The notes below the pieces were generated by a model that searched no databases, had not been told where the DNA came from, and saw nothing but the letters and a program-made list of their open reading frames with translations. Positions 3,239 through 59,700 of a stretch of 64,000 nt of DNA are shown here, piece by piece. Every line of letters begins with the position of its first letter. The first letter of the stretch is position 1. This stretch comes from Ceratodon purpureus (Eukaryota; Streptophyta; Bryopsida; Pseudoditrichales; Ditrichaceae): contig CM026433.1 of the NCBI GenBank assembly GCA_014871385.1, positions 7,041,528 through 7,105,527 on the forward strand, in the 5' to 3' direction. A program made the translations under genes and the position numbers.

Positions 3239-4555
3239 CTAATTGACGTAGCCGCAGCGCTGGCGGATCTGGCCCTGGGAGCCCTCGAGGGTCGAGATCT
3301 GGCTCATCTTCACCATGGCCTGCGTGAACTTGGGGAAGAAGTTGGCGTTGTTGCTGCTCTCCAGCACCAGGGGCCGCGTCCGGGTGTCCTCGTACAGCAC
3401 CTGGTCTGATGTTAGCAGGCCTGTGCGCTTCGCCAGGTTTTTGTAGTACTGCGCGTCGAACGTCGCGCTTGTGCCAGAGTCCAGGTCGAACTTGCGCTTC
3501 GTCGACCCGCGCTCGCGGCACTTCTTCTTCAGCTTGGCTGCGAAGTCCTTGGGCAGGAGCGGGTCCACCCCGGATGGACTCGGGTAGTCGTAGATCCGGT
3601 TGTCGATGTGCACGCAGGCGGCTTCGCCGATGGTGTGAGCGCCGGAGAGGATGACCATGTCGTCGCGCGTCAGGCCCTGCTTCCCGAAGTTGGCTGTCAG
3701 CTGGTTCACGTCCATTTGGGCCCCGGGGAGGTTGCTGGATGCCTCCGACGCGAGCGAGACGGTCCCGTCGCGGCGGCCTGCGGGCACTTCCCAGCCTGGT
3801 CCCCCGACCATCTTCACGCTGTCCCGCGCTGCGAACGCGAGGATGTCCGCGCATGACACGACGCCCGGGCAGAGTTTTTCCACCGCGGCCTTGGCGGCGT
3901 CGATGGCGCCGAAGCCTTCGAGGCGAGCGTTGACAGGAGCCGTTCTCTCGGTGCCGGATCCTTGCAGGAGCACGGACCCATCGCAGCCCTGCATATCATA
4001 TAGAACACATCCCACACCCCGTTAATTTGCAGCCAATGGAGAAATGTCATGAATACTGATGTCGGACTTCACAACCAATACAATCTGAATCGATTACTCA
4101 AGCTTGATCTGAAAAGCAATTGAGCTCTCGAAGTCAATCGACTTATCACATAAATGAGCTGCATTAGTCAGTCAAGTGCTTCAACTGGTGAAATGCTACC
4201 CGATAATGAGAATACTGTCGTTCACAAAAGAGACTATGAACTTTCACCACTTCGAGCATTCAACGGAACTGAAATTAGAGTGTGGAGTACTGACGCGAAC
4301 GAAGCAGTCGTGGAAGTGGAGGCGAAGCAGAACCGGAGGCAGATCCGGGTCATTGGCATGGAGCTGCTGCAATGTGCCGTAAATCGTCTCCTCGGCCTTC
4401 GGGCAGCTGTTGTCGTAGAAGCCAGTCTGCAGAGCACTCACTTCTCCAGCGGCCATGACTGACAAAATCATGACAACAAGCAATGCTGTCATCGTCGATA
4501 CACAGCTTCTCGCTGGACTGAGCATCTCAGCTGCTATGGTCGATGAGAATGTCAA
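3239..4555 (-). CDS. Class III secretory peroxidase (2 exons)
   Basis: Exons are complement 4295-4555 and 3239-3988, with a 306-bp phase-0 intron at the classical place between DCFVR and GCDGS. The product is 336 aa, normal for the family. It is a haem peroxidase of the secretory pathway and cell wall, using H2O2 to oxidise phenolics. The N-terminus has a hydrophobic signal segment (TALLVVMILSVMAAGEVSA). Distal Arg78 and His82 sit in LRLHFHDCF, proximal His205 in SGAHTIG, and the C-terminus is IRQRCGYVN. The paired cysteines of the family are present. ATGs at codons 11 and 22 are alternative starts that also keep the signal peptide; the first ATG is used by convention. All catalytic residues are intact. 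The MULE left end begins about 0.76 kb upstream of its start codon. Confidence 0.93.
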
Positions 4556-4670: not shown

Positions 4671-5309
4671 TGTGTGTCGGACTGGAGTATTACTTTGGAG
4701 GAGGGCGGAGGTTGGACTCAGTGCTGAAGCCACTGTAAACTTCGTTTAAAAATCACCTCAATTACCAAAGTTCTTTTTCTTTTTTCTTTTTTCTTTTTAT
4801 TTTATTCACTAAAATTTATCAGCTTAGCACGATCAGATTCGTGGCAGAAATCGAGTCACTCCTTCAATTTTGCATGGTGCTTGCAATGCAGTCTGGGTTG
4901 TGTTTTTGGACAATAATATCGTTCTTCAGGGTGTGTCTTCCTTCCACCGAGGGAGTTCACATTTTCCTCGAAGCCAACTTGTTCATTAATTGCAAGATTA
5001 AAGTGTAAGTGGTATAAGTGTATGTGTCTTGAACACCGTAGATGAGCATGATCTGATTTCACCGCAATGGCTCACAGCAGACTTGTGCAGCTCGAAGCGC
5101 CAATTAAACCAGTGACGTCATTGGTTTACAATCAAACTTTCAATTTCAGTGAAGCGAGACTTGCCATCTCATTTCAATTCATGCATGAACACTAAAAGCA
5201 TACCTAGTGAACCAAATTTAGGTGGATACTTGAAAAGTTAACTTGGAACTTTCAGTACCCGGACTTTGCACTTAATTCGAAAGACTGTCTGCGGAAAGGC
5301 TTTGGAAGG
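4671..5309. other. Upstream region of the peroxidase gene
   Basis: No ORF of interest. It contains a pyrimidine-rich TTTTTCT stretch (about 4770-4805). It ends at the target duplication of the MULE, so it is the remaining native promoter of the peroxidase. Confidence 0.45.
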
Positions 5310-5318
5310 GTTTTGGAA
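5310..5318. repeat. Left 9-bp target-site duplication of the MULE
   Basis: GTTTTGGAA lies directly before the left terminal repeat and recurs exactly after the right one at 13249-13257. The border could shift by one base (10-bp duplication). A 9-11-bp duplication is typical of the Mutator superfamily. Confidence 0.9.
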
Positions 5319-5666
5319 GGATCGCCGTATTCTAGTGCTACGAGCCTCCTGCGGAAGCCTCGCGCGGGCTGCGCTGCCCCGCGGGCAGCCCGAGACTCCC
5401 CTCCCCTCGAGACCCCCCCCCGCGGGGTCTTCCCAGTCCCGGTCCCCGACCCGCGAGACGCCCTCGACGGCGTTTCCTCGTCCGTCTGCTCCGTCCCCGT
5501 CCGGGCCCACCACCTCGCCACGTCACCCCTCCAGCGCACCCCTGCCCAGCACCCCCCTCTCCCCCCGTGCCCTAGCGCGGTCATTGCGTCTCCTCCCCGC
5601 CGCCGTGATGCGGAGCTGCTGCTCGCCGTGACTCTGCGACAGCACTGTGCGGAGCGCATGCTGTCC
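5319..5666 (+). repeat. Left terminal inverted repeat of the MULE
   Basis: 348 bp, very GC-rich, matching the inverse of 12902-13248 with one C/T difference and a 9-C versus 8-C run. After the main repeat a further 17-bp block (5671-5687) matches inverted 12865-12881, offset by a short unrelated insert. The 5' leader of the accessory gene must start in or beside this repeat. Confidence 0.95.
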
Positions 5667-5916
5667 TGGGAGGCGCCGTCCTGGTTCATGGTGCAATTAC
5701 TGCAGGTTTGGTGTAGAACGTCTAGTCGAGGCGCTCTGCTGCGAGTGCATTGAAGACGATCCTCAGCATGCCGGCGGAGCTGGGCTCTTAGGGTTCCCGG
5801 ACTCCCTCCAAGGTAGTCATTCGCTCCTGCATTGGCGTCGTAGAGTTCACGTTCGTCTTCTCGCAGCATCAGCAGTGACTACTTCAAGGCGTACCAGCAC
5901 CCACATTGTCGAAGCC

Positions 5917-8900
5917 ATGGCGCATCGTGTAAGTTGGTCATTACCTTCGTTGTTCTTTACTATAGTTACTGCTGCGATGGTCGTAGTCTTTGCTTGAATT
6001 GTTGTCCCTGTTTCGCTGCAATGCTGGGCATCGGTGACAGGTCAGGTCATCGGGTTCATGTCCTTCGAAGCTGCGTGTAATTGTGAAGTTTAGGTCTACA
6101 TGCTGTCGTCGTCACGTGTCGTTGTTGATTGGTAGTAGACGCATGTCGTCTACGTGATTTTGGAGTTGTTGTTGTAGTCATAGGTTGCTGGAAATGTGGT
6201 ATTTTAGTAATAAAGTTGGTGTTACAGGACGGGGATCGGGTCATCGTCGACCTGTCCAAGAAGAGTTATTCAGAGGCAGTCGACTACCTCCGGAGTCAGG
6301 CCACCGTACTCGACTACAACGCCATCGGTGTGAAGGGTCGGGAAATCCTCAACAATGCAGCTCCTGGCGTCGTCCCCGGGGTAAGCTGCTCTTACTGTAT
6401 GGCTGTCTTTTCATGATCTCATTCGTCCTGGGCATGTTCCCGAATTCTTAGTTGAGCATTGGCCCGTATTCTTCTTTGTGCAGCTGACGGTGAAGAATAG
6501 GAAGGGAGAGTTGGAGAGTGTCATACTCTGTACGACGGTGTGGACGGATAAGGAGAGGATGAGGGAGGCGTATACACAATCAGAATTCGACTGGTTGGTT
6601 GTAGAAGTCAACTCCTTGTGGCGTCGCAAGCACAGGACGGTGAAGATGAAGGCGAAGCGGATTCCTTTCTTTTGTAGGTTATGTAACAGGGACATGGTGG
6701 ACAAGAGCGAGCTGGCTTGGCATCGTCAGCAAGATCTGTGCACTGTCTACGACTCTGGGAAGGATGGACCGCAGAAGATGTTCCCTGTGAACGGAGCCAA
6801 GGGGAATTCTGAGATTGCAGCGGTTTTCAGGAAGTATAACCTGAAACTTCCATGGCAGAGCGGAGGGAAAGGAGGGGACAGACCGGAGGACGAGCCATCG
6901 GTGGAGGAGCCGGAGGAGGAGATGGTGCTAATCAGCAGCAGCGCATCCAGCGGGGATAGCGCGTACATGTCCCATCCGCCCATGAAGAGGAGGAAAGACG
7001 ATCCTACAATCGCTGAGCAGATTCAGGAGATCAAGAGGAAGAAAAGGGAGGACGCGGAGAAGGAGACTGCTACCAGTGATAGGAAGGGTAAAGGGCCGGC
7101 ATTGGAGAACAGGACGGGAGGGAAATCCGGGGCGCAGAAGACTCCTGTGCAGTCTAGGGCGGGTACCCCATCCCGTTCAGTGCCACCGAGACGGTTCAGA
7201 GGGGATTCGGAGTCGCCAAGGACGCCTGCTGACAGAGTTCGGCCGATTGCAAATCCGAAACCGCTTGACAGCATGCCTCCTCCGACGCTGGATGCTCGGG
7301 CCGATGTGGAGCGACAGCTGCTCCTGAAGTCGGTCGCCAAGTTTCCGGACACACTATTTGGCGATCCACCGAAGAAGCCCGGAAAACCCCCTGGTCTCTA
7401 CAGTCTTGTAGAGCAGACCGGGGACGTGATCGACTTGGAGCTGCTCACGGACGTGGACAAAGCGAAGGGAGCTATCCTGACCCTCCATGCAAATGGTACA
7501 TTGGGACGCAAGGTCTTCAACGCTTGGGGTGTCTTCTCCATAGACCCCGCAATTCGGGTAAGTTCTCCGTCCCTGTCCAGTGAGTGTCCATGTTAAATAC
7601 TTAGCGTATGTATGCGGTATCCCTGCTGACTGATTCCGTCGTTGGTATAGGACGGTCTTCCCATGCCTGTGTACGAAGCCGCGAAGATGTGCATTGAAGC
7701 TTTCCGTCAGCGTCATGAGGTTGCCATGAGGATGGAGATTGATCAGTTTATCGCGCACCACCAAAACGTCAGGCAGTACCAAGAGGATGAGGACACTTGG
7801 AAGTCGCAGAGGGAAGGAGTGCTTGCGGGCAGGAGGGCCTGGGTCAGTGCAGCGTTGGAGAGGTACGACAGGAATGTACTGTTGCAGGCAGAGGCATTGA
7901 AGTGGAACTGGAGTCCTCTCTTCATGCGATTACTCCAGAAGCCTGCCCCAGGTTTCTTGACTTTGCCTTGTCGCCACACCGAAGAAGAGTTCCAGAATAT
8001 CCTTACCTGGATACGTAGTGAGTGTCGTAGTCAGGACGAGGAAGTGGAGGCCCCTCCTTTTGTTAGAGCTCTGAAGCTGTTCAGCAGGCGGGAAAACGGT
8101 GTTGAGGCCCCCATGATCTGTCCGAGGGTTGGAATTACATCCCAATTCCTCTATGACAGGATGCAGCAGGTTAAGTTCGCAATGAAGGACTTGCCCACGG
8201 TCGGTCTTCTGCTCTTCCCCTCAATGGACACGAGATCTGATGACTTCAAGGCATTTTGCGATGTGACAGCCTCGGGAGCAGGATTCGAGGAGCAGGTCAA
8301 GGTCGGGGAGGTCTGGATGCGGAAGTGCTTTTGGCGGGCATGCAAAGATATGCTGGCGTTGGACAAAGAGGACGACCTCAGAGTCCTATGGCTGGAGGCT
8401 TCCAAGGCGAGGCGTGACAAGGCCCTGGAGGACTTCTGGCGTATCATGTTGCTACGCGAGGGGGTTGATTTGGGGTATGCCTTGGGGTGCCTCGACTGGA
8501 CAGGGGAGTGGAAGATTGTGCCCGCAAACGTAATTCAGGCCATGACAACGCTGCGGGACCTCTCCATTCAGTTCTGCAGGGACCAGTTGAGACCGTGGAC
8601 AGGACAGCAGCCCGAGGAGAGGGGGACTACATTGGCCGACCTTGAGGGTCTGGACATAGGAGGGGAGTTCGGGGCGTCCCAGGTACTCTGTACCATGGAG
8701 GCGCTAGGGAGGGTTGGCGAACTGGAGGATGACCAAGAGAAGGAAGAAAAAGAGGACGAAGGTTTTATGACGGTCTCTAGGAAGATTGGGGACGGTTCGC
8801 CTAAGCGTATGGATCTGCAGCCGCTGAAGGAGAGTGGTCAGACATCGGACATTCAGGACGTAAGCGGCTACAACCCCAATGACAGCAGTTCGGCTTCCGT

Positions 8901-8946
8901 GTGTCCATACACAGGGGAAGTGGTTGCCTTGGGACGGGAAGAGTAG
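5917..8946 (+). CDS. MULE accessory gene, unknown 844-aa C2HC-finger protein (4 exons)
   Basis: Exons are 5917-5928, 6228-6380, 6484-7557 and 7651-8946. All three introns are phase 0 with GTAAGT/GTAAGC donors and CAG/TAG acceptors, and the model ends in TAG. The start codon has a good context (GCCATGG); the first exon codes only MAHR. I do not recognise the family. A C-x2-C-x12-H-x5-C finger lies at residues 119-141. Basic clusters near 223-226 (KRRK) and 238-245 (KRKKRE) look like nuclear localisation signals. A Pro/Ser/charged, probably disordered linker covers about 183-330, and the C-terminal half (about 345-750) looks globular, with many Trp, Cys and Arg. The tail is acidic and Ser-rich. 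Its place opposite the transposase is that of mudrB in MuDR, but I see no likeness to MURB. A role in transposition or in evading silencing is only inference. Confidence 0.82.
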
Positions 8947-9624
8947 AGTAGCGCTTTCGGTAGGACGTTAGAACCAGACGGGGACAGTGACGTGCAGACA
9001 CCGAGGGGCTTATGGCACCGAACGGGAATTTTTGTAAATGGTGGTAACATTTGTAGGGACAAGGACTTTCTGATGACCCTTCGTAAATGTTTTGCCATGC
9101 TTTGTGTTTTTCTTCATGTTCGTTAAAAAATGCTTGGACTGTCAAAAGAATACAGAAGTTCAGGAGAGTGAAAACCAGGGACAGGTTCTCACGGAATTTA
9201 AGATAAAAATTAAAAGAAAAGAAAAACGACGGGAAATAAATTAAACAAAAAGGTAAACCTAATGATGAAAAAAATAAAAAAATAAAAAGGAATTAAAAGA
9301 TATTGAAAAAAAAAAAAAAATCAAATATAATGAAAGGGAAAAATTAAACAATTAAAAAAATAAAGGAAAATGAAGAGTACAAGAAAAAATAAAATGAAGA
9401 AAGAATAAAATAAACTGTAATTAAAAAAAATCATAAAAAAATAAAATATAAAAGGACGCGGTAAATTCGCGTCTCGTACACAGGATGGCTACCACCTACA
9501 TTGGCAGGACGCGCGAGTGAAGGAATTTCAGAGCTGAGCAAGAATTAACAATAGGACGGTTGCTGTGTCCCGACCCTGTCCTATGTAGTACACAGTACCC
9601 GTCCTCTACTACTGTATCCTGTTC
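8947..9624. other. A-rich spacer between the convergent MULE genes
   Basis: Largely A-runs on the plus strand (about 9190-9450) with no gene. It lies between the two stop codons and should hold the 3' UTRs and poly(A) signals of both convergent genes, for example several AATAAA-like motifs. Confidence 0.5.
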
Positions 9625-12600
9625 CTAGCCATTCTGCTCGACCTTTCTTTTCTTCCCTACGTTACCGCCCTTGTGTCTTGACCTTTCTAAGAAACTTGGA
9701 TGTCGTCGTGTGTTGTTGTCACACTCCCCTGGTGCGAACCGTGGTTGAGAGAGGGGATGTAATAACCCAGCTTCAGCCTTAGCCTGACGATCGAAGATCT
9801 TCCCCTTCATAGAACGCACCTGCGCTAGTGCAAACACTGTGAGTGATCTGTCCTTTGTCACCAAGTCTTGAATCTCTGCAAGCTCGGCTATAAAATCACG
9901 GTACTGACCGTTTGGACCACTTCCCTGAGTCCGGGCAGTTTCGTCCAGAGGAGCGTCCTCCCCAGCAACCACTGTCCTACTACCCTTAAACGCATCAATA
10001 TGGGAAGTGTCCATACCCGATTCAATAGTCCCCTTCAGCGTACCACAATGCCTTATAATGAGGGCGTCCTCGATGTCCGGATGTAGACACTTGAAAACCT
10101 TAACAGCGTGTTTACAGATGTTACCTCTCTTTCCCATTGGACAGTCGCATTGTGCCCAAACTGAATCAGGACACGTCACTGTCCACACTGCTGGGAAATT
10201 ATTCACAGATAGCACCAGAGCAATGTCCAACTTCTCAGGATAGATGAGGACGTTATCATGGGGGATCTCCCGCGCTCTAAGTACTGCCCCTGCAACAATC
10301 CCTTCCGCCTTTCTGTTTTTTATGAAACCGTAAAGCTTACATTGGACGCCATACCAGTAGTGCGTCAGTACGTCCCCCACAAGATGGTAGACCAACCAGT
10401 CCATACGACGTCCTGTGAGCTTCTGTCTTGTCTGCACCAAGATGGACTTCAAGTTAGCGTGATAGGATTCTACAGCAGCATTGGTGTCCTGGCCGCAATG
10501 TGGGAAATTCCTGTTCGCAGTAACCCACATGGCAGTTTTCCCACTCCAAGTCTCTTCGAAGTACGAGACGAAGGCTTCTGCAGCAGGAAATTTTTCACGA
10601 AGTAATCCTATCTTCACCTTCGCTCTCTGCACAGCTATATCACCTTCAACCAAATCAGGGGAGTACATTATTTCCTCCACAGCGTTCAGAACCTGGACAC
10701 GCAGGACGTCGTCCTTGATCTTCTGGACAGCGTTTTCTTTCCAAGCCTTCCTCACATGCCATAAGCACAGCATTATGGGCAGTCCAGGCCAAACAGTCCT
10801 GGAAGAAACACAAAAAAGTCGGTTGAGAGTATGAAAATGGACAGAGTAAAAGACACATAATTTAAATGTGACCGTCAAACGAGGACCACGGGGGAGGAGG
10901 GGAAGTACCCGATTGCGTTTATCTCCGCCTGAGCATTGTCTACGATAAAAGATCCAGGCTCCCAATCTGGATGTGCAGCCTTGCAGCGATCATTAAGTTT
11001 TTCAAGCCAAGGCTTGACGTCCTTCTCCTTTGATTTGCCGACAAGAATGAATGCAACTGGTATACCATTCTCCCACTCGTCAAATACCATGACAGTGTAC
11101 AGCGGATACTGCAGATATTTAAAACAGAACTCAGAAGATTAAAGTACAGTCCAGGACGCATGGAATTCCTCCAAACATTTGAGTCCATGACGGCAGATAC
11201 TACCCTGTATAAGAAACACGGAAAACGGAAATGCTGCGGAATACAAATATGATACATCATACCTTCGGTTCATTAGTTCCAAATGTCGCGTCCATTGCAA
11301 CCTGCCTCTTATGTCCATATCGAAGCATCATTTCTAGCTGCCAAGGTGTCTGAATACCAAGGCAGAATGGTAATTCCTCCTCCTCAGCAGTAGGGGCATC
11401 TGCATTTAAATTGATGTTACCAAATTCGTGGTAATGGAAAACACTGTCTTCATTCTCTTCTGTCCACATGCGGACACTCAAAGGGTCTTTGACGTGCTTC
11501 TGCCATAATTGAGATGCTCTCTTTTTGCTCAAATTGTAAACATCATCAGGCATAATGAATGTGTCTCTACTACAGGGCCTGTTATCTTTGGCGCACTCCC
11601 ATACTTCCTTCTTGTGGATGGCCATTACCTGTGCAGGCGAGAATCCCTGTGCTAACATGGTCCTAATCCAATTTCTTGTTCTCCAGGACAGCCTTGCACC
11701 TAAGGCATGTCTAAATCCTGCGAAGCTACTACCATGACAGGGCTTTCCCTGACTATTGACATGATTCATGTTATGGTATTGTATTTCACAGAGGGTGCTG
11801 TCCATGTACAATTGTTTTGCTACGAAATTGCACTGGCACCCTCGTTTTGAAGTCATACCTGCTTGAACCCTGCTAGCTCGACGGATCCTCCCAGGCCCGA
11901 CCTTTGCTGGAACAGGAATGCCGTCCTGGAATGGAGCATGCTTATCCTCATCGTCTGAATTATCTGAATCCTCTTCTAGAACTTCAACAGAAACCTGGGG
12001 AGGCAGTGGTCGTTTAGCACCCTTAAGTCTCTTTGCTTCAGCAGCGGCAAACTTCGCTGCTTCCTTTGCGGCCTTCTTTTCCTGCTTCTCAACTCGCTTT
12101 CTAGCATTCTTCTGATTCGTTGACAATTTCTTCTTTACAGCACTAGCAAATATTTTATCAACCTCGTTCTTGACTTCCTCTGTCCTGTCAAGAGGGCCGT
12201 ACTCGCAGTGAAACCTGTACCATGCCAGGTCCAATTATGAAAACAGATGTATTAGAACCCTAAAAAATAAATCAGTCTAATTAAGCCCGTCCTGGGCTCT
12301 GGTAAGAAGTCAGACATCAGATCTAAGTCCCTGGAACTGATATGAAACATATTCACAGAAGTGGAGCAAATCAGACTTACTTAATTTTCTGCAGGAAACT
12401 AGTTTCCTTCGGATTCTCAGCTTGACCGGCCTTGTGTCCTAGGCTGGGGACCTCATTGAAGGTGCACGGGAAATCCCTCATGCTCTGCTCACCCTCGACA
12501 AAATCCCCTAGCCGATCCCACGGAATAATCGCACGAAATGTTTCCCTGAGCCTACCACGTCCATTATTTGTCCTCCCTTCCCAAGCGATGTCTGTTCTGT

Positions 12601-12826
12601 CGAAAGGCCCATCTGGTGGGATCTGCAACCTAGCACGGAGTTTCTGCAGAGTAACATCCCGTACCCTGGCCCCCCCACTCGCCCTGGACGCCCTCTTCTC
12701 AATCGCCTGTATACCATCCTCATCATCTCCGTCCTCGGCATCGGAACATCGTAGGCATCCAGTACCTTCGAACTCCAATGTGAAGGGATCCTGATCCGCA
12801 GCAAGGTCGACCACGTCGACCTCCAT
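9625..12826 (-). CDS. Mutator-like transposase, DDE + SWIM zinc finger (4 exons)
   Basis: Exons are complement 12381-12826, 11263-12214, 10909-11108 and 9625-10798; intron phases 2, 0 and 2 close in frame to give 923 aa. The protein catalyses excision and integration of the element in the nucleus. The order is: an acidic N-terminus; a Lys/Ala-rich coiled segment; a Cys/His cluster (RGCQC ... YHNMNH) like the zinc-binding DNA-recognition module of MULEs; then the catalytic core. Core residues are Asp457 (MDATFGTN), Asp523 (FIVDNAQ) and Glu643 (TNAAVESYH), with the family CxxH at Cys544/His547. A SWIM finger C-x-C...C-x-H follows at 750-763, and the end is basic. No frameshift or stop is seen, so the enzyme should be functional. 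Its start lies 75 bp inside the right TIR, which probably supplies the promoter. Confidence 0.93.
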
Positions 12827-12901
12827 GGCGACTTCCAGTACGACACAGCGCTACGTGGACATTCGAACCAGGACGGCGCCTGCTTGCGCAGGAGCACCGG
12901 G

Positions 12902-13248
12902 GGACAGCATGCGCTCCGCACAGTGCTGTCGCAGAGTCACGGCGAGCAGCAGCTCCGCATCACGGCGGCGGGGAGGAGACGCAATGACCGCGCTAGGGCA
13001 CGGGGGGAGAGGGGGGTGCTGGGCAGGGGTGCGCTGGAGGGGTGACGTGGCGAGGTGGTGGGCCCGGACGGGGACGGAGCAGACGGACGAGGAAACACCG
13101 TCGAGGGCGTCTCGCGGGTCGGGGACCGGGACTGGGAAGACCCCGCGGGGGGGGTCTCGAGGGGAGGGGAGTCTCGGGCTGCCCGCGGGGCAGCGCAGCC
13201 CGCGCGAGGCTTCCGCAGGAGGCTCGTAGCACTAGAATACGGCGATCC
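12902..13248 (-). repeat. Right terminal inverted repeat of the MULE
   Basis: 347 bp, the inverted partner of 5319-5666. An additional 17-bp match lies just inside at 12865-12881. The transposase start codon (12826-12824) is immediately internal to it. Confidence 0.95.
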
Positions 13249-13257
13249 GTTTTGGAA
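13249..13257. repeat. Right 9-bp target-site duplication of the MULE
   Basis: GTTTTGGAA, identical to 5310-5318. Confidence 0.9.
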
Positions 13258-15235
13258 GAGGCTTCTACTATTAAATTGGGTTTGTTTTCAAAACCGAGGA
13301 TCAGTTGTGTTACCCGAAGGCTTGCTGGCATGTGTTGCAACCAAGTTCGACCTCCGACATTTCAGTCTGCGCTCCGACACTTTCTTCAACTTTCTTTCCT
13401 CTCCTCCCGCTGCTTCACTGACAACTCTTTTTGCGCTTCCGCCAGGGTATAGGATTCAGCCTCATGAGTCTTGCGTTTTCAAATTCCTGGACTTGGTTCC
13501 ACACGGTGCATTTTCCTTTCACCACGCCTTCCGGTGTCTTCTGTACAGTACAATTTTAGTACTGGCATCTCGGAGTTCGCATTATTACGTACTACGGTTA
13601 AAGTGCATAACTCGTCGATCCTGAAGCCACGTAGTTTGATGAACACTATTAATCCAACCGCCCTACCTCGATTATCTTCGACATGCATTCTCGTCAGGAA
13701 CGATCACGGCCTAAGACCCATTAATCTGCTTCTTTTCCTTGAATTATTTCCAAGAGCCATTATATGGAAAAAGTTCCTCTGCGTGGGAGAAGCCATGCAA
13801 GGCCAGAACAGACCCCGCCCAGCAATAAATGATTGACCTAAACTGGGTGCACAAGGCAGGCTGGCATGTTGTGTTGCCTTTGTCCAGGATCATCATCATT
13901 CGGGCAAACATCCATGCTGCTACATACTCGACACGTAAGTCTTTGGAGGCGCATTCGAGCAAGCCAGTGGTCCACACCGATGGGCAAGTCCCTATTTTGG
14001 ATCCTCCATTCTTGAAATTGTATCACATCCTTGTAGATTCAGCTCCTGGTCGGCTACTAGTTACTTCTTCTTCCTGCCTGATTGATCTACCATCCTGAAA
14101 TTCTTTAAGTTAGCCATGGAGGCCAGTGAATAGAAGCACCGTAGGTGCTGCTACTTAAAGAGTTGAACTCATGAGTGACCCCGCTCATCATGCTCTCACA
14201 ATTTGCCGTATAGCAGTGACTCTGAAGTTGTCAAATGTTTGCCAGAATGAACGCGATCGTAAGAGCGACCAAGAAGACATGGAATCCTAAAGTGTAATGT
14301 TTAAATCATGTATCTGTCCCTCGAGAACCAGTTTATTGTTATGTATAAACAAGGCGTACGAGTCTCAATGGACTTCTAGTATAGACTCCTGGAAACGAAT
14401 AAGCAAAAACAAATGTGCATGTTGTGGAGTACATAAACTGAAGCGGCCCCTTCTTGTGAAAACGTGGAGAGAAGTCCGAAGGTCAAGCTTAGAAGAATAT
14501 GATGGGAAGGAGTATGGAGCAAAATTTGTAGATTCAGCGAGCTGGTTTTTCTCAAATCACAAGGAAAGGAATTCAGGCAGAGTCGCAGAGAAGAGGATTG
14601 AACACAATTGTGATACCATAAAGAATTTCATACACTCGGCTATTCATACGGAGACACAATATCACCACAACAGTATTATCTTCATTCAAATACGCAAAAC
14701 GCACCACGAAACAGTATTTATCCCCAAGAAGGGAACGTAGGTCGGTAATCATCCTTTTTTTTTAAAACCCCTAAACTAACAGATCATGGGTCATCCAACA
14801 TAGTATACATGATACAAGCTTGTGATCACATTACAAACAAGAGCAAATGCACTGCGAACTCGTCATCAAACACGGCATGTAGGATTCTCTCCACCTCGTC
14901 CCCCATACAGAAGGTAGGTGCCCCAGTCAACTCTGTCGCCGTTGCCGAGGTAGGCGTCATAGCACTGAGGAGGAACAGTGGCCCAAGTAGTGGCCCCAGA
15001 TAGCCCGGTGGTAGGAACATGATACCAAAGATTGTCGTTCCTGTTCTGCCACACAACGTTTCGCAGGTATGCGGCACCCAATTCATTAGAGTATTTCCCT
15101 GTGCCCATGTGGGTATTCGTCACCCGGCCGTTGGTGACGATCGGGTGGTGTTTTTCAGAATGAAGACACCCGCTTCATTTTGAAAAACAACCAAAAGATG
15201 TAAAGTAGACAGAGGAAAGAAATGTTGTTGACTAA
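13258..15235. other. Region without a confident gene
   Basis: Several ORFs of 60-150 codons overlap on both strands, for example 13744-13977 (-), 14297-14740 (+) and 14866-15123 (-). None shows a family motif, and I could not chain them with convincing splice sites. The minus frame at 14866-15123 is moderately protein-like (Trp/Tyr-rich) and might be an exon downstream of the hydrophobic ORF at 15236-15493. Confidence 0.35.
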
Positions 15236-17034: not shown

Positions 17035-19105
17035 AACCAGTTGAAGACGTTTATGTATAACTGTATTCAAACCTTTTAAATTTTGATTCAAATTTTTTAA
17101 GATGGAAAAACCTATCTTGCTTGAGTTCACGTTTAACTTGGGGAATCCCTGGGTCTTTCTGCTTCACATGGCCTCGTAGATACAATTTTAACCTAAACTG
17201 AAAGTCTGGTAATTTTACCAAAATGCTAGAATAGCTGTACATAATTTAGTCCGGCACCCCAAACGTTAATGAGTCCTCTAAACTTGAGAACAACCTTGAC
17301 AATTGTAATTCAATCTCTATCAATTTTCTATACTGTATATAATTCTAAGCATCTATATTTCTGCGTACAGTGTCTGTAGGACTATAAGTATCCAACTTTT
17401 GTATTAACAGCGAGTCCGTATTGGACTGAAGTATTTGCAAAGAGAGTCACAGGTTGTCCATTATTCAGAAAAAGATTGCACCCACTTCACATACTTTGCC
17501 AAAGTTTGTTCACCTATTCTGTTAAGTTTACACTTCCTTTCGAAGGTGTTACGTAGCCCGCAATCAGGGTCAATTTGAACAACTACTGTTTAAAGTGTTG
17601 TGTCTGTCAGCAGCAATGCTTCTTTCACTCATCACCGAGGTCATGTGTGATGTTTTCCTTGTGCGCATTAGCGTGCCAAATGGCTGGAGATACTGGAACT
17701 AACAATTAATACTTCCATCTTCATTTCAACTCTTGCCAATGGATTTGTATCTGCATGTGTCATCCTAATCTCTTCTATCAAAGCAGAAACACATGTATGA
17801 AGGTAATCAAGGTAAGCAGCTTCGGAACTGAAATCCTTCAGGCTAGCTATCTGGATTTTATCTCTCAGAGTTTAGATTCTGTGACAATTTATACGTTGTG
17901 GTGTAAATACCACTTCAATTGTAGGTGTACTGGTAATTGGCCTTCCACGACCAACTTGCTAGTACAGTAGATAGATAGCAGGCTTGTTCATAATAATTCT
18001 AATTAAAAAAAAATGGAAAAATTTGGAAATTTCTAAGGTGGAAAAACGAAAATATGATAAATTCATTTTTGTGATACTTGTCTATTTTTTAGTCCATTTA
18101 AAGTAATTTTTAATATTTTTGGAAAAATAAAATACTTAAAATTTTGATTTTTGGAAGACAAACCTTATTATTCCAAAAAGATAAATATATGTTTAAGCCT
18201 GAACAAATCTATTGACATACGATAGTGGGTGGAGAATCCAGTAGATTACTGATACTTGTCTTTGGAGGTTTGCAATTATCAGCAAAGTTAGTTGAGAAAG
18301 GCTCTTTGAAAGATGCAGAAAAGAGTGCATTGGAGGTATGTAAGGGTGACAAAAATGAAGCCTTGGAGAAACTTTGTAGTGGTTAAAATATGTCAAAATA
18401 TACTAAAATGTTTATTGAAGTGTTTAGGCTTGGTCGTACATTTTGGATTATATAGGTACTTGGCAACCTACTTTCTTTGCCACAACTTGCTCCATGGTTT
18501 ATAGAAGTGACTACTGTAAAATGAAATTCATCTTTTATTTGGTTTCATATAGACCTTTTGATATCTTAGTACCACATCACTAGCATGAACATTTTGAAAT
18601 ATTATGGATTGTTTTGTCATTTGTCCAATTTAGGCACCAACATAAACAAGTCTTTACAACACATTAATATTTGATGCTAACACATTAATATTTGATGCTT
18701 TTATATTTTATAAATCTTGGTTTTATATACATAAATTGAATATCATGCATGAAATCACATAATTCAAACATTGAGGTGATAAGCCTTAGATATGCACTTT
18801 GTAATAGGCTTTAGCCATACATCAATATTCATTAAAAAAAGTTTTGCCAAGAGTTCTGCTAATTTAACTTACAAATCCACATTTAAAACAACATCTAAAC
18901 AACATTCATAAAACTATTCCAATCTTTCAGCCATATGCATAGGAGAATTCAATAGCACCTAAAGTGTCATTGAATTCATGACACATTCTAATAAAACGAG
19001 TCATTGGTGTTTTACCAATTGTGGGTACCAAAAAATATCCCAAGGGTCATTCAGTCTATGACACTTGGTAGATGATGTTGAAAATGTTCAAAATTATAGG
19101 CAAGT
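17035..19105. other. AT-rich intergenic DNA with one dispersed repeat
   Basis: No gene seen apart from the repeat at 17959-18190. Short ORFs (17755-17970, 18193-18396, 18313-18504) are unsupported. The right end should be the 3' UTR of the CFAP73-like gene. Confidence 0.45.
17959..18190 (+). repeat. Dispersed AT-rich repeat, copy A
   Basis: Shares scattered blocks with 24101-24396 (same strand) and 28123-28381 (opposite strand): a GCAGGCTTG-like start, then CCATTTAAAGTAATTTTTA, then GACAAACCTTATT. It is the shortest copy and lacks the terminal GGTGTTACGGTA. Confidence 0.6.
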
Positions 19106-24100: not shown

Positions 24101-24396
24101 TACTATTGTAGTACCATAGCAAGTTTGCCCAAAAATAATTCTAAAAAAAAAAAAAAAAAAAAACATTAACAAAATATAAAACTACAAAGATACAAAATTG
24201 ATTATAGAATATACTAGTTTTGTAATATTTTGTTATTTTTGAGCCATTTAAAGTATTTTTATTGATTTTTTGCTAAAGAAAGAAAACTAAGAAACTCACT
24301 TTATGATAGACAAACCTTATTCTTTCAAAAAAAATAAAAAATGTTTGGCAAGTGACAAACCTACTTTGGTGTTACGGTACCTCTCCCATATTTTCA
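24101..24396 (+). repeat. Dispersed AT-rich repeat, copy B
   Basis: Includes an A-run (about 24139-24162), the block TTTGTAATATTTTGTTATTT, CCATTTAAAGTATTTTTA, GACAAACCTTATTCTTTC and the terminal CTTTGGTGTTACGGTA. All of these recur in inverted order in copy C. Confidence 0.65.
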
Positions 24397-28122: not shown

Positions 28123-28381
28123 TTACCGTAACACCAAAGCAGATTTGCCACGTGGTACACAAGTATTTATTTTTATTTATTTGAAAAAAAATAAGGTTCA
28201 CTTCTCAAAAATTAATTTTCTTCATTTTTTTAAAAATATTAAAAATTATCTTAAATAGCTTAGAAATAACAAAATATCACAAAAAGAACTATTCAATTTT
28301 TGTTTTTTGTCTCCATTTTAATTTTTTCCGTTTTTTCTATTTTTAGTTTTTTGGGATGAGCCTGCTATGATACTAGGGTAG
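28123..28381 (-). repeat. Dispersed AT-rich repeat, copy C (inverted)
   Basis: On the minus strand it reads TAGTATCATAGCAGGCTCAT, then TTTTGTGATATTTTGTTATT, GTGAACCTTATTTTT and CTTTGGTGTTACGGTA, the same order as copy B. Confidence 0.65.
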
Positions 28382-29230: not shown

Positions 29231-30158
29231 AAAAACACAAAAAAACTGCTACTCATCAGTGCCCACAATACGCCAAAGGAAAAAACATATTTTACTTCAC
29301 CTCCAGATAAACACCCCAGTAAAAGACAAATAACAACCCCATTCACTGCGAACGCGGTTCCCCGCTCCGCTCAGTCCAAAACCTCGCCCAAACCAAATCA
29401 CCCCATTCCTAGATCCCGATTCCTAGATCCCACCACCAAACCCCAACATCTCAAACCAAATCTATGTGCCGTGTGGATGTAGTGTTCTAGATTTCGGATT
29501 GGGATGTAGGGAGAGGGGAGATGGGGTAGTGGAGCGGAGAGGAGTCGCGAAGTGCGTCTGAGCGCGGAGAGAGAGAGAGAGAGGGAGCGAGAGCAAGCGC
29601 GGAGAGACAAGCGCGTCGGAGCTGATTGTTGGTGGAGGTCGAGGTCGAGGACGAGGTCGAGGTGGTGGGAGCCAGCGTGCGCCGTGGGGCAACACCGGGG
29701 CCGCAGCGCAGATAAAGAGATCGATCCTCCTTCTCAGGTCTGGGAGTTTTTCTTGTCATTTTGCTCATCGGAGACGGGAGACGGGAGATACGGGAGACGG
29801 GGGGAGCGCGTGGAGCGGGTGGGGAGGGTTTGGAGATTGCGTTTCAGGGCGCGGCGAGGGGAGGGGAGGTGGTGTGCGGGGGTTATGTGAGTGTGGGAGA
29901 GGGGTTTGGAGGGAGTTCGGGGTTGCGGGGTGGGAATTTGGTGGCATTGGGGGGGCTAGGGTTTGAGGGGTGGGGGGTAGGGTTGTGAGGGGGGAGGATT
30001 TGAGGAATTGAGATGGTGGAGCGGGAGTGATTGGAGGGGATTAGATGTGAGAATGTGTCTGGATGCCGCGGCGAGACGGGGCCGCAGTTGTGGGGTTGTG
30101 TTGTGTGAGAGTGGGTTTTGGAGGTAGGGGAGTGTGAAGGGGGGAGGGGAGGGGAGAG
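29231..30158 (+). promoter_or_regulatory. Upstream region and GA/G-rich leader of the MAPKK gene
   Basis: The base composition switches from AT-rich to purine-rich near 29500. A GA tract lies at 29565-29583, followed by GGA/GGGG-rich DNA up to the start codon. GA-rich leaders are common in plant 5' regions. Transcription start not determined. Confidence 0.45.
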
Positions 30159-31289
30159 ATGGCTGCGGCGAATGATAGGAGGAGTAGGGGGATGGGATTG
30201 TCGTTGAATTTGCCGTCGCGGCAGTCGCCACGGCCGCCACCGGTGCCACAGCCATTGCCGCTGCCTCCGCCGTCGTTGGATGAGAGCAGGTATAGCAGGG
30301 GGAGCAACAATCCGGGGAGCAATCCGGGGAGCAATCCGGGGGGCAATCTGGGGGGGAATCCGGTGAGCAGGGGGTTGAGTGGAGGGGTGTATCACGGGCA
30401 TCACGGGGGAGCGCAATTGCCACAGAATAGGGATGTGGTGTTGGCTGATCTGGAGAAGATTGGGGTGCTGGGGGCGGGGAGTGGCGGGAAGGTGTACAAG
30501 GTGCGGCATCGGTGGACGGGGAAGGAGTACGCGCTGAAGATCATCCAGGAGAAGCACGAGCTGGCGGTGCGGAGGCAGATCATGCGGGAGATGGATATTC
30601 TGCGGTCGTCCAAGTCGCAGCATCTGGTAGAATGCTACGGGGTTTTTGACAGAGGGGGTGAAATTTCGTTCGTGTTGGAGTACATGGACGGGGGCACGCT
30701 CGCCGATGTGTTGAAGTATCACAAGAAGATTGGTGAGCGCTACTTGGCGGAGGTGACGAAGCAGGTTCTGTTGGGGTTGCTGTACCTTCACAAGCACAAA
30801 ATTGTGCATCGGGACATCAAGCCTTCCAATTTGCTTCTCAATCGGAAGCAGGAGGTGAAAATTGCGGATTTCGGAGTGAGCACTGTGTTGGCTAATACTC
30901 TAGCGCAGTGTAACTCGTTTGTGGGGACTTGTGCGTACATGAGTCCTGAGCGGTTCGATCCGGACGGGAACGGAGGAGAGTATGGATACGCAGCTGATAT
31001 TTGGAGCCTTGGGCTGACCCTCTTGGAATGCGCTATTGGGCGGTTCCCGTGCCTAAAACCTGGCGAGAAGCCTGACTGGCCAACCTTGATGTATGCTATA
31101 TGCTGGGGAGAGCCACCTTCGCCACCAGCGGATGCTTCTCCCGAGTTCCAAAACTTCATCATCAATTGCTTGCAGAAGAATTCAAACAGCCGGCCTTCAG
31201 CTGAGATGTTGTTAAATCATCCCTTTGTCAGAAGATACGAGGGGCAGCCTGGTGTTATCTCAGAATTGTTGCAAGGTTTGGTGTTGTGA
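30159..31289 (+). CDS. MKK: MAP kinase kinase, MKK4/5-type (intronless)
   Basis: 376 aa, uninterrupted, as usual for plant group C/D MAPKKs. It phosphorylates a MAPK on its TEY loop in stress and developmental cascades. The N-terminus has a MAPK docking site (RRSRGMGLSLNLP, residues 7-19), followed by a Pro-rich and an Asn/Gly-repeat linker. Kinase landmarks: P-loop GAGSGG 105-110, Lys127, HRDIKPSN 218-225 with Asp219, DFG 237-239, and SPER 262-265. The activation loop has the plant S/T-x5-S/T spacing, Ser241 and Thr247, followed by CNSFVGT. All catalytic residues are present, so it should be active. The ATG follows a purine-rich leader and is the first in frame. Group C (MKK4/5) fits better than group D (MKK7/9) from the docking site, but this was not tested by phylogeny. 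Confidence 0.95.
   Translation: MAAANDRRSRGMGLSLNLPSRQSPRPPPVPQPLPLPPPSLDESRYSRGSNNPGSNPGSNPGGNLGGNPVSRGLSGGVYHGHHGGAQLPQNRDVVLADLEKIGVLGAGSGGKVYKVRHRWTGKEYALKIIQEKHELAVRRQIMREMDILRSSKSQHLVECYGVFDRGGEISFVLEYMDGGTLADVLKYHKKIGERYLAEVTKQVLLGLLYLHKHKIVHRDIKPSNLLLNRKQEVKIADFGVSTVLANTLAQCNSFVGTCAYMSPERFDPDGNGGEYGYAADIWSLGLTLLECAIGRFPCLKPGEKPDWPTLMYAICWGEPPSPPADASPEFQNFIINCLQKNSNSRPSAEMLLNHPFVRRYEGQPGVISELLQGLVL
30303..30362 (+). repeat. In-frame 12-bp repeats (NPGS/NPGG) in the MAPKK linker
   Basis: Repeats of AGCAATCCGGGG encode SNPG-type tetrapeptides at about residues 49-68. Copy number could vary between strains without breaking the frame. Confidence 0.75.
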
Positions 31290-56770: not shown

Positions 56771-59700
56771 TTAAACATCAAAAGCAATGGGAGAAACATT
56801 AAAAGCACAAGGAACTACAGATTTATCAAGTATCACAACAGTGCATGTCCTGATTGTTTCAGAAAGTGAAGGCAAGGAACGGTACCTTTGTAGTTCTCCT
56901 TCAACAAAACAATGATAATAGCGATTGTACACCAAAGCACGTTTGACATCGTCTTTCTTCGCCAGCCCATCAGCGAGAGCTGCAGCTGATGCACCTCCTA
57001 TTTCTGCTCTATGATATGGGAGGTGCCAGGGCACAAAATACTCCTGCTGCTCTGCCTCGCCAACTATACCAGCATCTGAACTCAAGGACTCATCTCCGAC
57101 GTCCTGTTGTGGGGTATCAGCCTCACCCACGCTTCGGCCCAACTGTGCTGCCTCCAGCACAGTGTCTTTAGGCGTGTTTTCACATGGATTCGCTGAGGAA
57201 ATCTGGCTTTCTCCTTCGTTAATGCTCTTGAGGGAATTTATTGACAAGTTCCTTTGGAAAGTGGTCCCTGTATCAGCAACCCACTCTTCCGTGTACTTAC
57301 AAGTTAACGGTGTCCACTTGGTCAGTAATTTCTTGTCTTCTTGTTCCACAGCCCACACTGTAAAAAGAACTCTGCCTTTCGGGCGAACAACTCTGAGCAA
57401 CTCTTCTATAGCACGTATCCTTCGCTCCTCATTGCTCAAATGATGCAAGACCGCAATGGAAATGCCAGCATCGCAGAATCCCGTTCTATGTGGCAAGTGT
57501 AATGCATCTGCCACAAATACTTCATGACCGTGCTGCGCACAGATACCTATCAAAGGAGGGCTGATGTCGCATCCAACAAAAAAACAATTCTTGTTGAATC
57601 CTAAGTACTTTCCATTCCCACACCCAGCATCAGCAACGACCGAGCCAGGTTCCAATGACTCCAAAAATAATGCCACTTTTGGCCATTTTGCAAATCTTGT
57701 ATCACTAAAATGAGGAGCGATAGCATTGTACACCTTGTGCACATAGCGCTTTTCAATTTCAGGAGTAGCTGCATTGAAGTGCTTCGGTTGGCTGCCCGTC
57801 TCCACAGGTATGTAGGGGATCTCGTTGCTGAAATCCCCCTCTTCAGGGGAATCTACAGATGCGTATCCTTTTGTTCCCTCGTCAATTGAACAGCGAGAAC
57901 TGTCAAGAGCAAGCGTACGAGTATCTGACAATTGAGAGTCACAGTGCTCAATGAAAGTGCAACTACAAGGACCTGGCCTCACCTGCCAACACAAAACAAG
58001 TGATCAGTCATTGCTATATAAATAAGGGTGACACTAATTCCAGAGTACCTAGATAAAAAATACGATTAGTTTCAACTCCTACGATTAGTTTCAACTCCTA
58101 CGATTAGTTTCAACTCTTATGACAGCGTGAGCATTTTCGGAGTTAAGGAGAAAAATTCTACAAATAAAAAAAATAGAAAGCCAGATATAACACGTACCTT
58201 CCTGAAAGTGAAAGAAACTCGTCGAGTGCCTCGATCTAATACTTGGCCATTCACATTGTCAATCTGTAGACAGACGTCCACGTCTCGAGTTATGTACAAC
58301 TGAATACATTCCTGTTCAAATTAGAATCAAATAGACATGCTGAACGCAAGTGTACCAAATTGCACTACTCTTGTAATCAATGAAAGATGAAAACAGTACC
58401 TTGTGATGAGGTATGTAGTGATGCCAGGCATAACGTGCCTCCCCAGACAAAATCAGCAGTGATCTCTGAGGGAGAAAAAGAGCCTTGCGGATCACCTCTA
58501 CTGATTTATTCGGTAAACAATCATCCTTCTGCCCATTCATTGATTCGGAGTTTCCGTACGATTCATCTCTCATATCTTCGTTGTCATCCGCCGGGGAATC
58601 ACCTCTATTGATATACTTCCGGAACTCCATTATACAAGGGCCACCCAGCGACAGAGAGAGAATGGAGCCCTCAAATGCTGAATGTGTGTCAATGTGCGGC
58701 GAGAGTCCAACACCCCTTGGATACTCGTTCACCTGTAAATATCAGGACATCATAAACCCATAAGGACTTACATGCACTAGCCAACTGACACTGCTACTGA
58801 CATAATGTTAAAAGATTGAGAGATTTGTTAAAATACAAATCCTTAACAGGCTAAAACAGGAAAATGTGCATACTTACGGTAAGTTGATCAAATGGAAGGG
58901 TTGGCTCTTTGGCATTTCTAATGTCGGGAACCAAAGAAATCTTCTTGAGAACTGGCTCCGAAACTGACGGTAGCTCTCCAAGTCTCTGAGTCAAGTCCAC
59001 ATTCCTAGTCTGTAAAAAATGCACACAACCATAAGAGAGCTACACTTAAGGGGTGATTGCAGCTTCTAAAAAGAGCAGAAAGAGGACAGAAATGAATGCT
59101 AACAACGACAGCCACTTGCGCGCAAATAAAATGAATTATCGAAATAACAAGGAGGATTCATCCGCATGAGAAACTCAAAATTTATTGGCACATTTTGAGT
59201 ATAGTGAATTATTCATTCGAAGAATACTGCAATAAAGAAGATACAAATTCTTGTAAACACAGACAGTGAAAGACTACCCCTGCACATGGTACACAAGAAA
59301 GAGGTAAATTAAGGACCTTATACAAAAACTCGTACCCATAGTGCTGTACCCTCCTTTTCGCAAGGGTTTGCCAGGGCCTCTCATCCACCTCGTGCAACAG
59401 CTCCTGCAAAGAAAATTCGAAAATAAATCTTCTAATCACATTAATTATCATAGTTCATAACCCAACACTTCTAACTCAGCAGAAACATAAAGTACGAAAG
59501 ACTTCAATGAGAAAGTGTTCAGTTAAGGACCTGTTCTTCTTCTGAAGTGATAAAGTCAGTGTATAACGTAAGCCCTGGTATACCAACATCCACACTTGAC
59601 ATGGAAACCACAACCTGTTCTCCTGCCTAGAACACAAGCCACTATCCACGGTGAGTCTTCTGAGCGGGTTCTTGGTGATCAAGGTTTTAAATTAATTCCA

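What the first reader, a model, noticed from the sequence alone, without database searches (positions are those of the whole stretch)
5310..13257. Intact, apparently autonomous two-gene MULE with convergent transposase and accessory gene
Exact 9-bp duplication, 348/347-bp TIRs with only two differences, and two multi-exon genes that both close in frame. The layout copies maize MuDR (two convergent genes starting at the TIRs), yet the second gene is unrelated to MURB as far as I can read. A complete, young, potentially active Mutator element in a probable bryophyte would be a useful system.
Basis: partly seen in the sequence, partly recalled or inferred. Interest (0 to 1): 0.88.

Follow-up and report, generated by a model that had tools for sequence, protein, structure and literature searches.

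The report
Two-gene jumping element in a moss
This is a complete two-gene Mutator-type jumping gene in what is probably a moss genome, one of many copies in which the transposase sits beside the same unknown zinc-finger partner gene, which makes the role of such partner genes testable.

Summary
A 7,930-bp element (5319-13248) has 348/347-bp terminal inverted repeats with two differences and an exact 9-bp target duplication. Two convergent four-exon gene models close in frame: an 844-aa accessory protein and a 923-aa transposase with MULE and SWIM domains. Of 22 family copies read to both ends, 18 have perfect 9-bp duplications. Six genomic places match the joined flanks over at least 273 of 281 bases at 91-96%; of three read, one carries a single exact GTTTTGGAA, a paralogous empty site. 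Four of 18 aligned copies keep both genes open; between diverged intact copies dN/dS is 0.08-0.16 for both genes. The accessory is not a private addition: 83 of 107 scored transposase matches have a convergent accessory match within 10 kb (shuffle mean 0.2), including 68 of 71 in a group only 48-52% identical. So this is one member of a deep two-gene MULE group with a conserved C2HC zinc-finger partner without Pfam match. Expression, activity and the partner's function remain unproven.

The parts
5310..5318 (.). 9-bp target site duplication, left copy (GTTTTGGAA)
   Evidence: single copy at the empty site L046
5319..5666 (+). left terminal inverted repeat, 348 bp, terminus GGATCGCCGTAT
   Evidence: 40 matches in the genome, 40 of 69 candidates scored
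5917..5928 (+). accessory gene exon 1 (ATG about 250 bp inside the inner edge of the left TIR)
   Evidence: starts with Met in 18 of 18 copies in the alignment
6228..6380 (+). accessory gene exon 2
6484..7557 (+). accessory gene exon 3: C2HC zinc finger, low-complexity basic linker, conserved block before the splice site
   Evidence: P0022, P0024 and P0025 read on into the intron at the same place (by eye)
6673..6741 (+). C2HC zinc-finger motif C-x2-C-x12-H-x5-C of the accessory protein
   Evidence: motif found in 17 of the 18 aligned copies (not L013; L028 has a stop inside it) and in deep-group L043; profile A2 matches PRDM9 fingers weakly, E 0.0014
7651..8946 (+). accessory gene exon 4 (conserved; predicted helical at low confidence) with stop codon
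9190..9460 (.). A-rich tract between the two facing 3' ends; identity to L009/L010 changes between about 8.8 and 9.8 kb
9625..10798 (-). transposase exon 4: catalytic E region (by eye), SWIM zinc finger, C-terminus
10909..11108 (-). transposase exon 3: part of the MULE domain, second catalytic D (by eye)
11263..12214 (-). transposase exon 2: first catalytic D (by eye, AMDATF)
12381..12826 (-). transposase exon 1 (ATG about 76 bp inside the inner edge of the right TIR)
12902..13248 (-). right terminal inverted repeat, 347 bp
13249..13257 (.). 9-bp target site duplication, right copy

Best explanation
A complete cut-and-paste Mutator-like element of a deep group that, wherever it could be scored or read, nearly always pairs a SWIM-type MULE transposase with one conserved C2HC zinc-finger accessory protein, the two genes converging from opposite ends. 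Shown from sequence: structure, 9-bp duplication, empty site, other copies, conserved exon structure, purifying selection on both genes, and side-by-side occurrence across diverged groups. Inferred: transcription starts in or near each TIR, the transposase cuts at the TIRs and joins the element to a 9-bp staggered target, and the accessory is a trans-acting DNA-binding helper. My estimate of its role: about 50% a transposition or insertion cofactor (in the manner of MURB or MutB), about 35% an anti-silencing factor (in the manner of VANC), the rest something else. The confidence below is for the structural part of the statement, not for the role.
For: Anatomy. Spliced transposase: MULE 55.7 bits (cut-off 27.6), ZSWIM1-3 RNaseH-like 35.2 (27.2), SWIM 20.2 (19.6). 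Copies; 18 of 22 elements read to both ends have perfect 9-bp duplications. Paralogous empty site. Selection: accessory dN/dS 0.152 (WIN-L009), 0.083 (WIN-L011), 0.088 (L009-L011); transposase 0.159, 0.094, 0.094 for the same pairs. Deep-group accessory exon 4: 0.064-0.083 in five pairs among L035-L038, two synonymous and no other changes for L035-L036, 0.23-0.33 in the four pairs with L039 (few changes per pair). Pairing: 83 of 107 transposase matches, 68 of 71 in the deep group, shuffle mean 0.175 and maximum 2 of 200. L043, read directly, has both genes in the same order and orientation with the same zinc finger.
Against: No RNA, protein or transposition data. Most copies are broken: both genes open in 4 of 18 under the projected model. 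In L043 about 30 transposase residues before the catalytic E find no match, so that copy looks damaged. TIRs of the deep group were not read: L043 ends short of its far end and the search for its TIR did not complete. In the close group only 15 of 36 transposase rows found an accessory in the table, though the accessory was read directly beside several of the rest. No fold is assigned to the accessory (pLDDT 43 and 40), and its zinc finger rests on a motif and a weak profile match in which no single stretch passed on its own.
Confidence: 0.85

Rival explanations
1. The accessory is chiefly an anti-silencing protein, like VANC of Arabidopsis VANDAL elements, that binds element DNA and removes methylation; it is not part of the transposition reaction.
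For: A separate gene with a putative DNA-binding finger that evolves faster than the transposase (WIN-L011 dN 0.072 against 0.035; L043 34-41% identity against 45-69% per matched piece). VANC is likewise less conserved than VANA (passages of PMC5735166).
Against: VANC proteins show DUF1985 and DUF287 (figure legend), while this protein has no Pfam match. I did not look for short repeated target motifs in the non-coding parts of the elements, so the rival is not really tested.
Confidence: 0.35
2. The accessory is a host gene fragment captured by chance (Pack-MULE-like passenger) with no role for the element.
For: MULEs often capture host genes (section 3 of PMC6446971).
Against: It lies in the same orientation beside transposases that differ by half their residues, is under purifying selection and keeps its splice sites. 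No Pfam family matches it; I made no dedicated search for a host paralogue.
Confidence: 0.03
3. The window copy is intact by chance but immobile: a silenced or dead element whose genes are open only because it inserted recently.
For: Only 4 of 18 copies have both genes open; TIR identity does not track integrity (L021); there is no expression evidence.
Against: Purifying selection between intact copies shows that the lineage moved with working genes; two deep-group copies differ by only two synonymous changes in accessory exon 4 (L035-L036).
Confidence: 0.25

Closest known systems
MuDR (maize Mutator; mudrA and mudrB)
   Same: TIR element with a transposase gene and a second gene transcribed in the opposite direction (section 3 of PMC6446971; passages of PMC9168764; convergence from the TIRs is recalled).
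   Different: Different host; the accessory here is an 844-aa C2HC zinc-finger protein without Pfam match; no MURB sequence was compared; the pairing recurs at more than 80 places in one genome.
Abermu elements of grasses (type II: ORFR opposite to the transposase)
   Same: Type II has two ORFs, the second (ORFR) in opposite direction, of unknown function and without similarity to MURB (passages of PMC9168764).
   Different: The barley form is over 8 kb with three ORFs, and some members lack ORFR; here the partner is found across groups whose transposases share about 50% identity. Homology to ORFR not tested.
VANDAL elements of Arabidopsis (VANDAL21/Hiun: vanA, vanB, vanC)
   Same: MULE with an accessory protein that evolves faster than the transposase (passages of PMC5735166).
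   Different: Hiun carries three genes and VANC shows DUF1985 and DUF287; here two genes and no Pfam domain in the accessory.
Mutyl of the yeast Yarrowia lipolytica (MutB)
   Same: Two-gene MULE whose second protein is said to have a DNA-binding role (section 3 of PMC6446971).
   Different: 22-bp TIRs and a fungal host (Table 1); the paper's text says same orientation, its Table 1 antisense. No sequence compared.
SWIM-type MULE proteins of Ceratodon, Adiantum and Riccia (P0004-P0008)
   Same: Relatives of the transposase at 29-42% identity with the MULE and ZSWIM1-3 domains.
   Different: Named only hypothetical or SWIM-type proteins; whether those elements carry the accessory was not testable here.

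Membership tests
Mutator superfamily (MULE) | 8-11 bp target site duplication | tested here: met
   9 bp, perfect in 18 of 22 elements read to both ends; empty site
Mutator superfamily (MULE) | MULE transposase domain | tested here: met
   PF10551 55.7 bits against cut-off 27.6
Mutator superfamily (MULE) | DDE catalytic residues | tested here: inconclusive
   D, D and E picked by eye in AMDATF, IVDNAQAE and AAVESYH (sequence); the assignment is recalled, not computed
Mutator superfamily (MULE) | zinc-finger DNA-binding motif, often SWIM | tested here: met
   PF04434 20.2 bits against cut-off 19.6
Mutator superfamily (MULE) | long terminal inverted repeats | tested here: met
   348/347 bp
MuDR type with two convergent genes | transposase and second gene facing each other from opposite ends | tested here: met
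MuDR type with two convergent genes | second gene homologous to mudrB | not tested
   no MURB sequence was fetched; the accessory has no Pfam match
VANDAL | accessory VANC with DUF1985 or DUF287 | tested here: not met
   no Pfam family at E up to 1 for the spliced accessory; that the library holds both DUF models is assumed
Abermu | homologous ORFR | not tested
   no ORFR sequence at hand
Autonomous active element | transcription and transposition shown | not testable with these tools
   only open genes, selection and copy comparison

The most novel reading that the evidence does not exclude
In mosses a whole clade of MULEs uses an obligatory two-part system: a SWIM-type transposase and a dedicated C2HC zinc-finger partner that diverge together as cognate pairs, inherited as one convergent unit through divergence down to about 50% transposase identity. 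The partner would decide where or whether insertion happens, or keep the element unsilenced, and its specificity would be clade-specific.
Probability: 0.4. Interest if true: 0.75.

Novelty: new variant of a known kind. Interest (0 to 1): 0.6.

Why it matters
Additional genes of MULEs are often assumed to be acquired from the host, and the function of most is unknown (section 3 of PMC6446971). Here one accessory family sits beside one transposase group at more than 80 places in a single genome, with purifying selection and intact copies. That gives a natural series of candidate cognate pairs for asking what accessory proteins do (insertion or anti-silencing) in a plant with a haploid main generation. 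It also gives a candidate mobile element with a known empty site.

Tried and rejected
The full-length accessory query found nothing at E up to 0.001 among 7,811 candidates; a query of its C-terminal 486 residues found 13, probably because most relatives on record are single-exon pieces below the length limit of the first search. Pattern scans of prokaryote and viral contigs found no relative of the accessory (215 and 391 stretches matched a short pattern, none confirmed). AlphaFold models of the two main accessory exons were too poor for a fold search (pLDDT 43 and 40), so none was run. PDB sequence search of exon 4 and of its profile found nothing. TIR identity as an insertion clock was rejected: cut-and-paste movement does not make the two TIRs identical at insertion (recalled), and L021 has identical TIRs with neither gene open. 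Recent capture of a host gene was rejected because of the deep pairing. Rfam found nothing in the window.

Unexplained: synonymous divergence differs between the two halves of the same pair of elements. For WIN-L009, dS is 0.292 for the accessory and 0.070 for the transposase; for WIN-L011, 0.862 and 0.369. Identity to L009/L010 changes around the A-rich tract. Trees of the two halves recover the same clusters in the close family but place L020-L022 differently. Exchange of halves and different rates are both possible; not resolved.
Full report
CHECK OF THE OBSERVATION. The element spans window 5319-13248 (7,930 bp) between two copies of GTTTTGGAA (5310-5318, 13249-13257). The TIRs are 348 and 347 bp with one indel and one substitution (one search finds the same arms). 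Joining GT-AG exons gives an 844-aa accessory protein on the + strand and a 923-aa transposase on the - strand, both closing in frame. Joining the transposase exons raises the Pfam MULE score from 25.3 bits in the best single exon to 55.7, with ZSWIM1-3 RNaseH-like 35.2 and SWIM 20.2, each above its cut-off. The start codons lie about 250 bp (accessory) and 76 bp (transposase) inside the inner TIR edges, and the two genes end 678 bp apart, facing each other.

HOST. The window lies at G000:C13:7041528-7105527 in a genome of 362,488,568 bp and 151 contigs, with one contig of 110.5 Mb. Relatives of both proteins occur in Ceratodon purpureus (P0004; P0023, locus M758_UG146300 on a 112-Mb contig). 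The best place for P0023 in G000 is only 62% identical, which neither shows nor excludes the species. A direct test (P0004 against G000) did not complete.

OTHER COPIES. The TIR gives 40 matches, 40 of 69 candidates scored, many in pairs about 8 kb apart. I fetched 26 stretches. With the window they represent 24 insertions: 18 complete elements including the window copy, which were aligned; two more full-length ones (L031, L032); one 6.4-kb copy with internal deletions (L029); one split by a nested insertion (L024+L034+L025); and two with one end only inside the fetched stretch (L023, L030). L030 may itself be split, since one search lists a transposase match about 4 kb beyond it. Of the 22 with both ends, 18 have a perfect 9-bp duplication; L028, L029 and the split copy have two mismatches and L032 six. 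All 18 aligned elements carry both genes, some with lost pieces (L013, L015). In the alignment, 214 of 216 splice sites are GT or AG (exceptions in L013 and L027), after using a donor 4 bases upstream in nine copies of one subfamily. Under that projected model the accessory is open in 5 of 18, the transposase in 7 of 18, and both in 4 of 18: the window copy, L009, L011 and L019. A projected model can call a truly intact copy broken; in another alignment exon 1 of L021 and L022 was placed differently. L031 and L032 have a broken accessory under projection; the L032 transposase is open.

EMPTY SITES. The joined flanks (281 bases) match six places over at least 273 bases at 91-96% and six more at 75-76%; the window's own flanks match as two separate halves. 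Three of the six were read: L046 (C13:10365643-10365922) has the unbroken sequence with a single exact GTTTTGGAA; L044 and L045 are unbroken with two differences inside the nine bases. The element therefore inserted into one copy of a dispersed repeat, 793 bp upstream of what I take for the start codon of a class III peroxidase (Pfam peroxidase 242.5 bits for the ORF at 3239-4021; first exon and start at 4525 by eye). These are paralogous empty sites, not alleles.

SELECTION. Nei-Gojobori dN/dS for the accessory is 0.152 (WIN-L009), 0.083 (WIN-L011) and 0.088 (L009-L011); for the transposase 0.159, 0.094 and 0.094 in the same pairs and 0.114-0.120 in the three pairs of these with L012. Two very close pairs gave 0.213 (accessory L018-L019) and 0.455 (transposase L017-L019) on few changes. 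Pairs between subfamilies are saturated at synonymous sites and were not used. Only copies with open frames entered these counts.

THE ACCESSORY IS A LARGE FAMILY BESIDE THE TRANSPOSASE. P0023, 37% identical to the window's exon 4 in the alignment, matches 133 places in the genome (132 of 347 candidates scored); 81 of the 133 rows have no stop in the match. Most rows are outside the 24 insertions above. The transposase's exon 4 gives 107 rows (106 of 807 candidates scored), so both tables are capped. Of the 107, 83 have an accessory row within 10 kb in convergent orientation (median gap 2.0 kb), one has an accessory in another orientation, and 23 have none in the table. Two hundred shuffles of position and strand gave a mean of 0.175 and a maximum of 2. 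In the close group 15 of 36 rows are paired; the rest include copies where I read the accessory directly (L014, L015, L016, L021, L028), so the cap and the remote query explain at least part. In the deep group (48-52% identity, 71 rows) 68 are paired. Seen from the other side, 85 of 133 accessory rows have a convergent transposase in the table and 48 do not. Rows are matches, not elements; a few elements give two rows. L043, one of those 48, contains both genes when read: accessory pieces 34-41% and transposase pieces 45-69% identical, same order, convergent, same zinc finger. About 30 residues of its transposase before the catalytic E find no match, so this copy looks damaged, which may be why it was missing. 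Deep-group accessory exon 4 is also constrained: dN/dS 0.064-0.083 in five pairs among L035-L038, two synonymous and no other changes for L035-L036, and 0.23-0.33 in the four pairs with L039, all on small numbers of changes.

WHAT THE ACCESSORY LOOKS LIKE. A C2HC motif C-x2-C-x12-H-x5-C, a basic low-complexity linker, a conserved block that ends at the exon 3 splice site, and a conserved exon 4 predicted helical at low confidence. Relatives from unnamed short contigs, probably metagenomic, share 44-94% identity in exon 4 (P0013-P0021), and those of exon 3 (P0022, P0024, P0025) read on into the intron at the same place. A profile of exon 3 matches PRDM9 finger chains weakly (E 0.0014 and 0.0017; no single stretch passed on its own). 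No Pfam match and no relative confirmed in prokaryote or viral contigs.

MECHANISM. Inferred from MULE biology: the transposase binds the TIRs, cuts, and joins the element to a 9-bp staggered target. The accessory is most likely a DNA-binding helper. In maize MURB is needed for new insertions (passages of PMC9168764; section 3 of PMC6446971) and in Arabidopsis VANC counteracts silencing (passages of PMC5735166; start of the abstract of PMC10398659 in the listing). My data fit either role; neither was tested.

NOVELTY. Convergent or oppositely transcribed second genes unrelated to MURB are known in MULEs (Abermu). New here, as far as I can tell, are the accessory family itself, the probable moss host and the recurrent pairing across a deep group. 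My searches of the open-paper library listed no title or abstract start that describes a two-gene MULE family in a moss. Of the papers cited I saw: PMC6446971 outline, sections 3 and 6 and passages; PMC9168764, PMC5735166 and PMC10856949 passages only; PMC10398659 the listing only. Subscription papers and repeat databases are not covered.

Noticed in passing
   Followed up: partly
L035 (C2) and L036 (C9): Deep-group copies whose accessory exon 4 differs by only two synonymous changes, each with a convergent transposase row nearby: a sign of recent movement outside the window's subfamily.
   Followed up: partly
5161-5318 and 13258-13380: The insertion lies in a dispersed repeat with 12 other matches in the genome; the nature of that repeat was not studied.
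   Followed up: partly
8800-9800: Identity to L009/L010 changes from about 90% on the accessory side to about 98% on the transposase side, with a fourfold difference in dS for WIN-L009; possible exchange of halves between elements.
   Followed up: partly
528-725: Three tandem copies of a 66-base unit, the second and third 95% and 65% identical to the first.
   Followed up: no
18086-18147, 24218-24290, 28205-28284: Inverted repeat arms 75-76% complementary in an AT-rich stretch; possibly remains of another mobile element.
   Followed up: no
30138-31289 and 56771-58003: Protein kinase ORF (Pkinase 229 bits) and methyltransferase ORF (52.5 bits), ordinary neighbouring genes.
   Followed up: no
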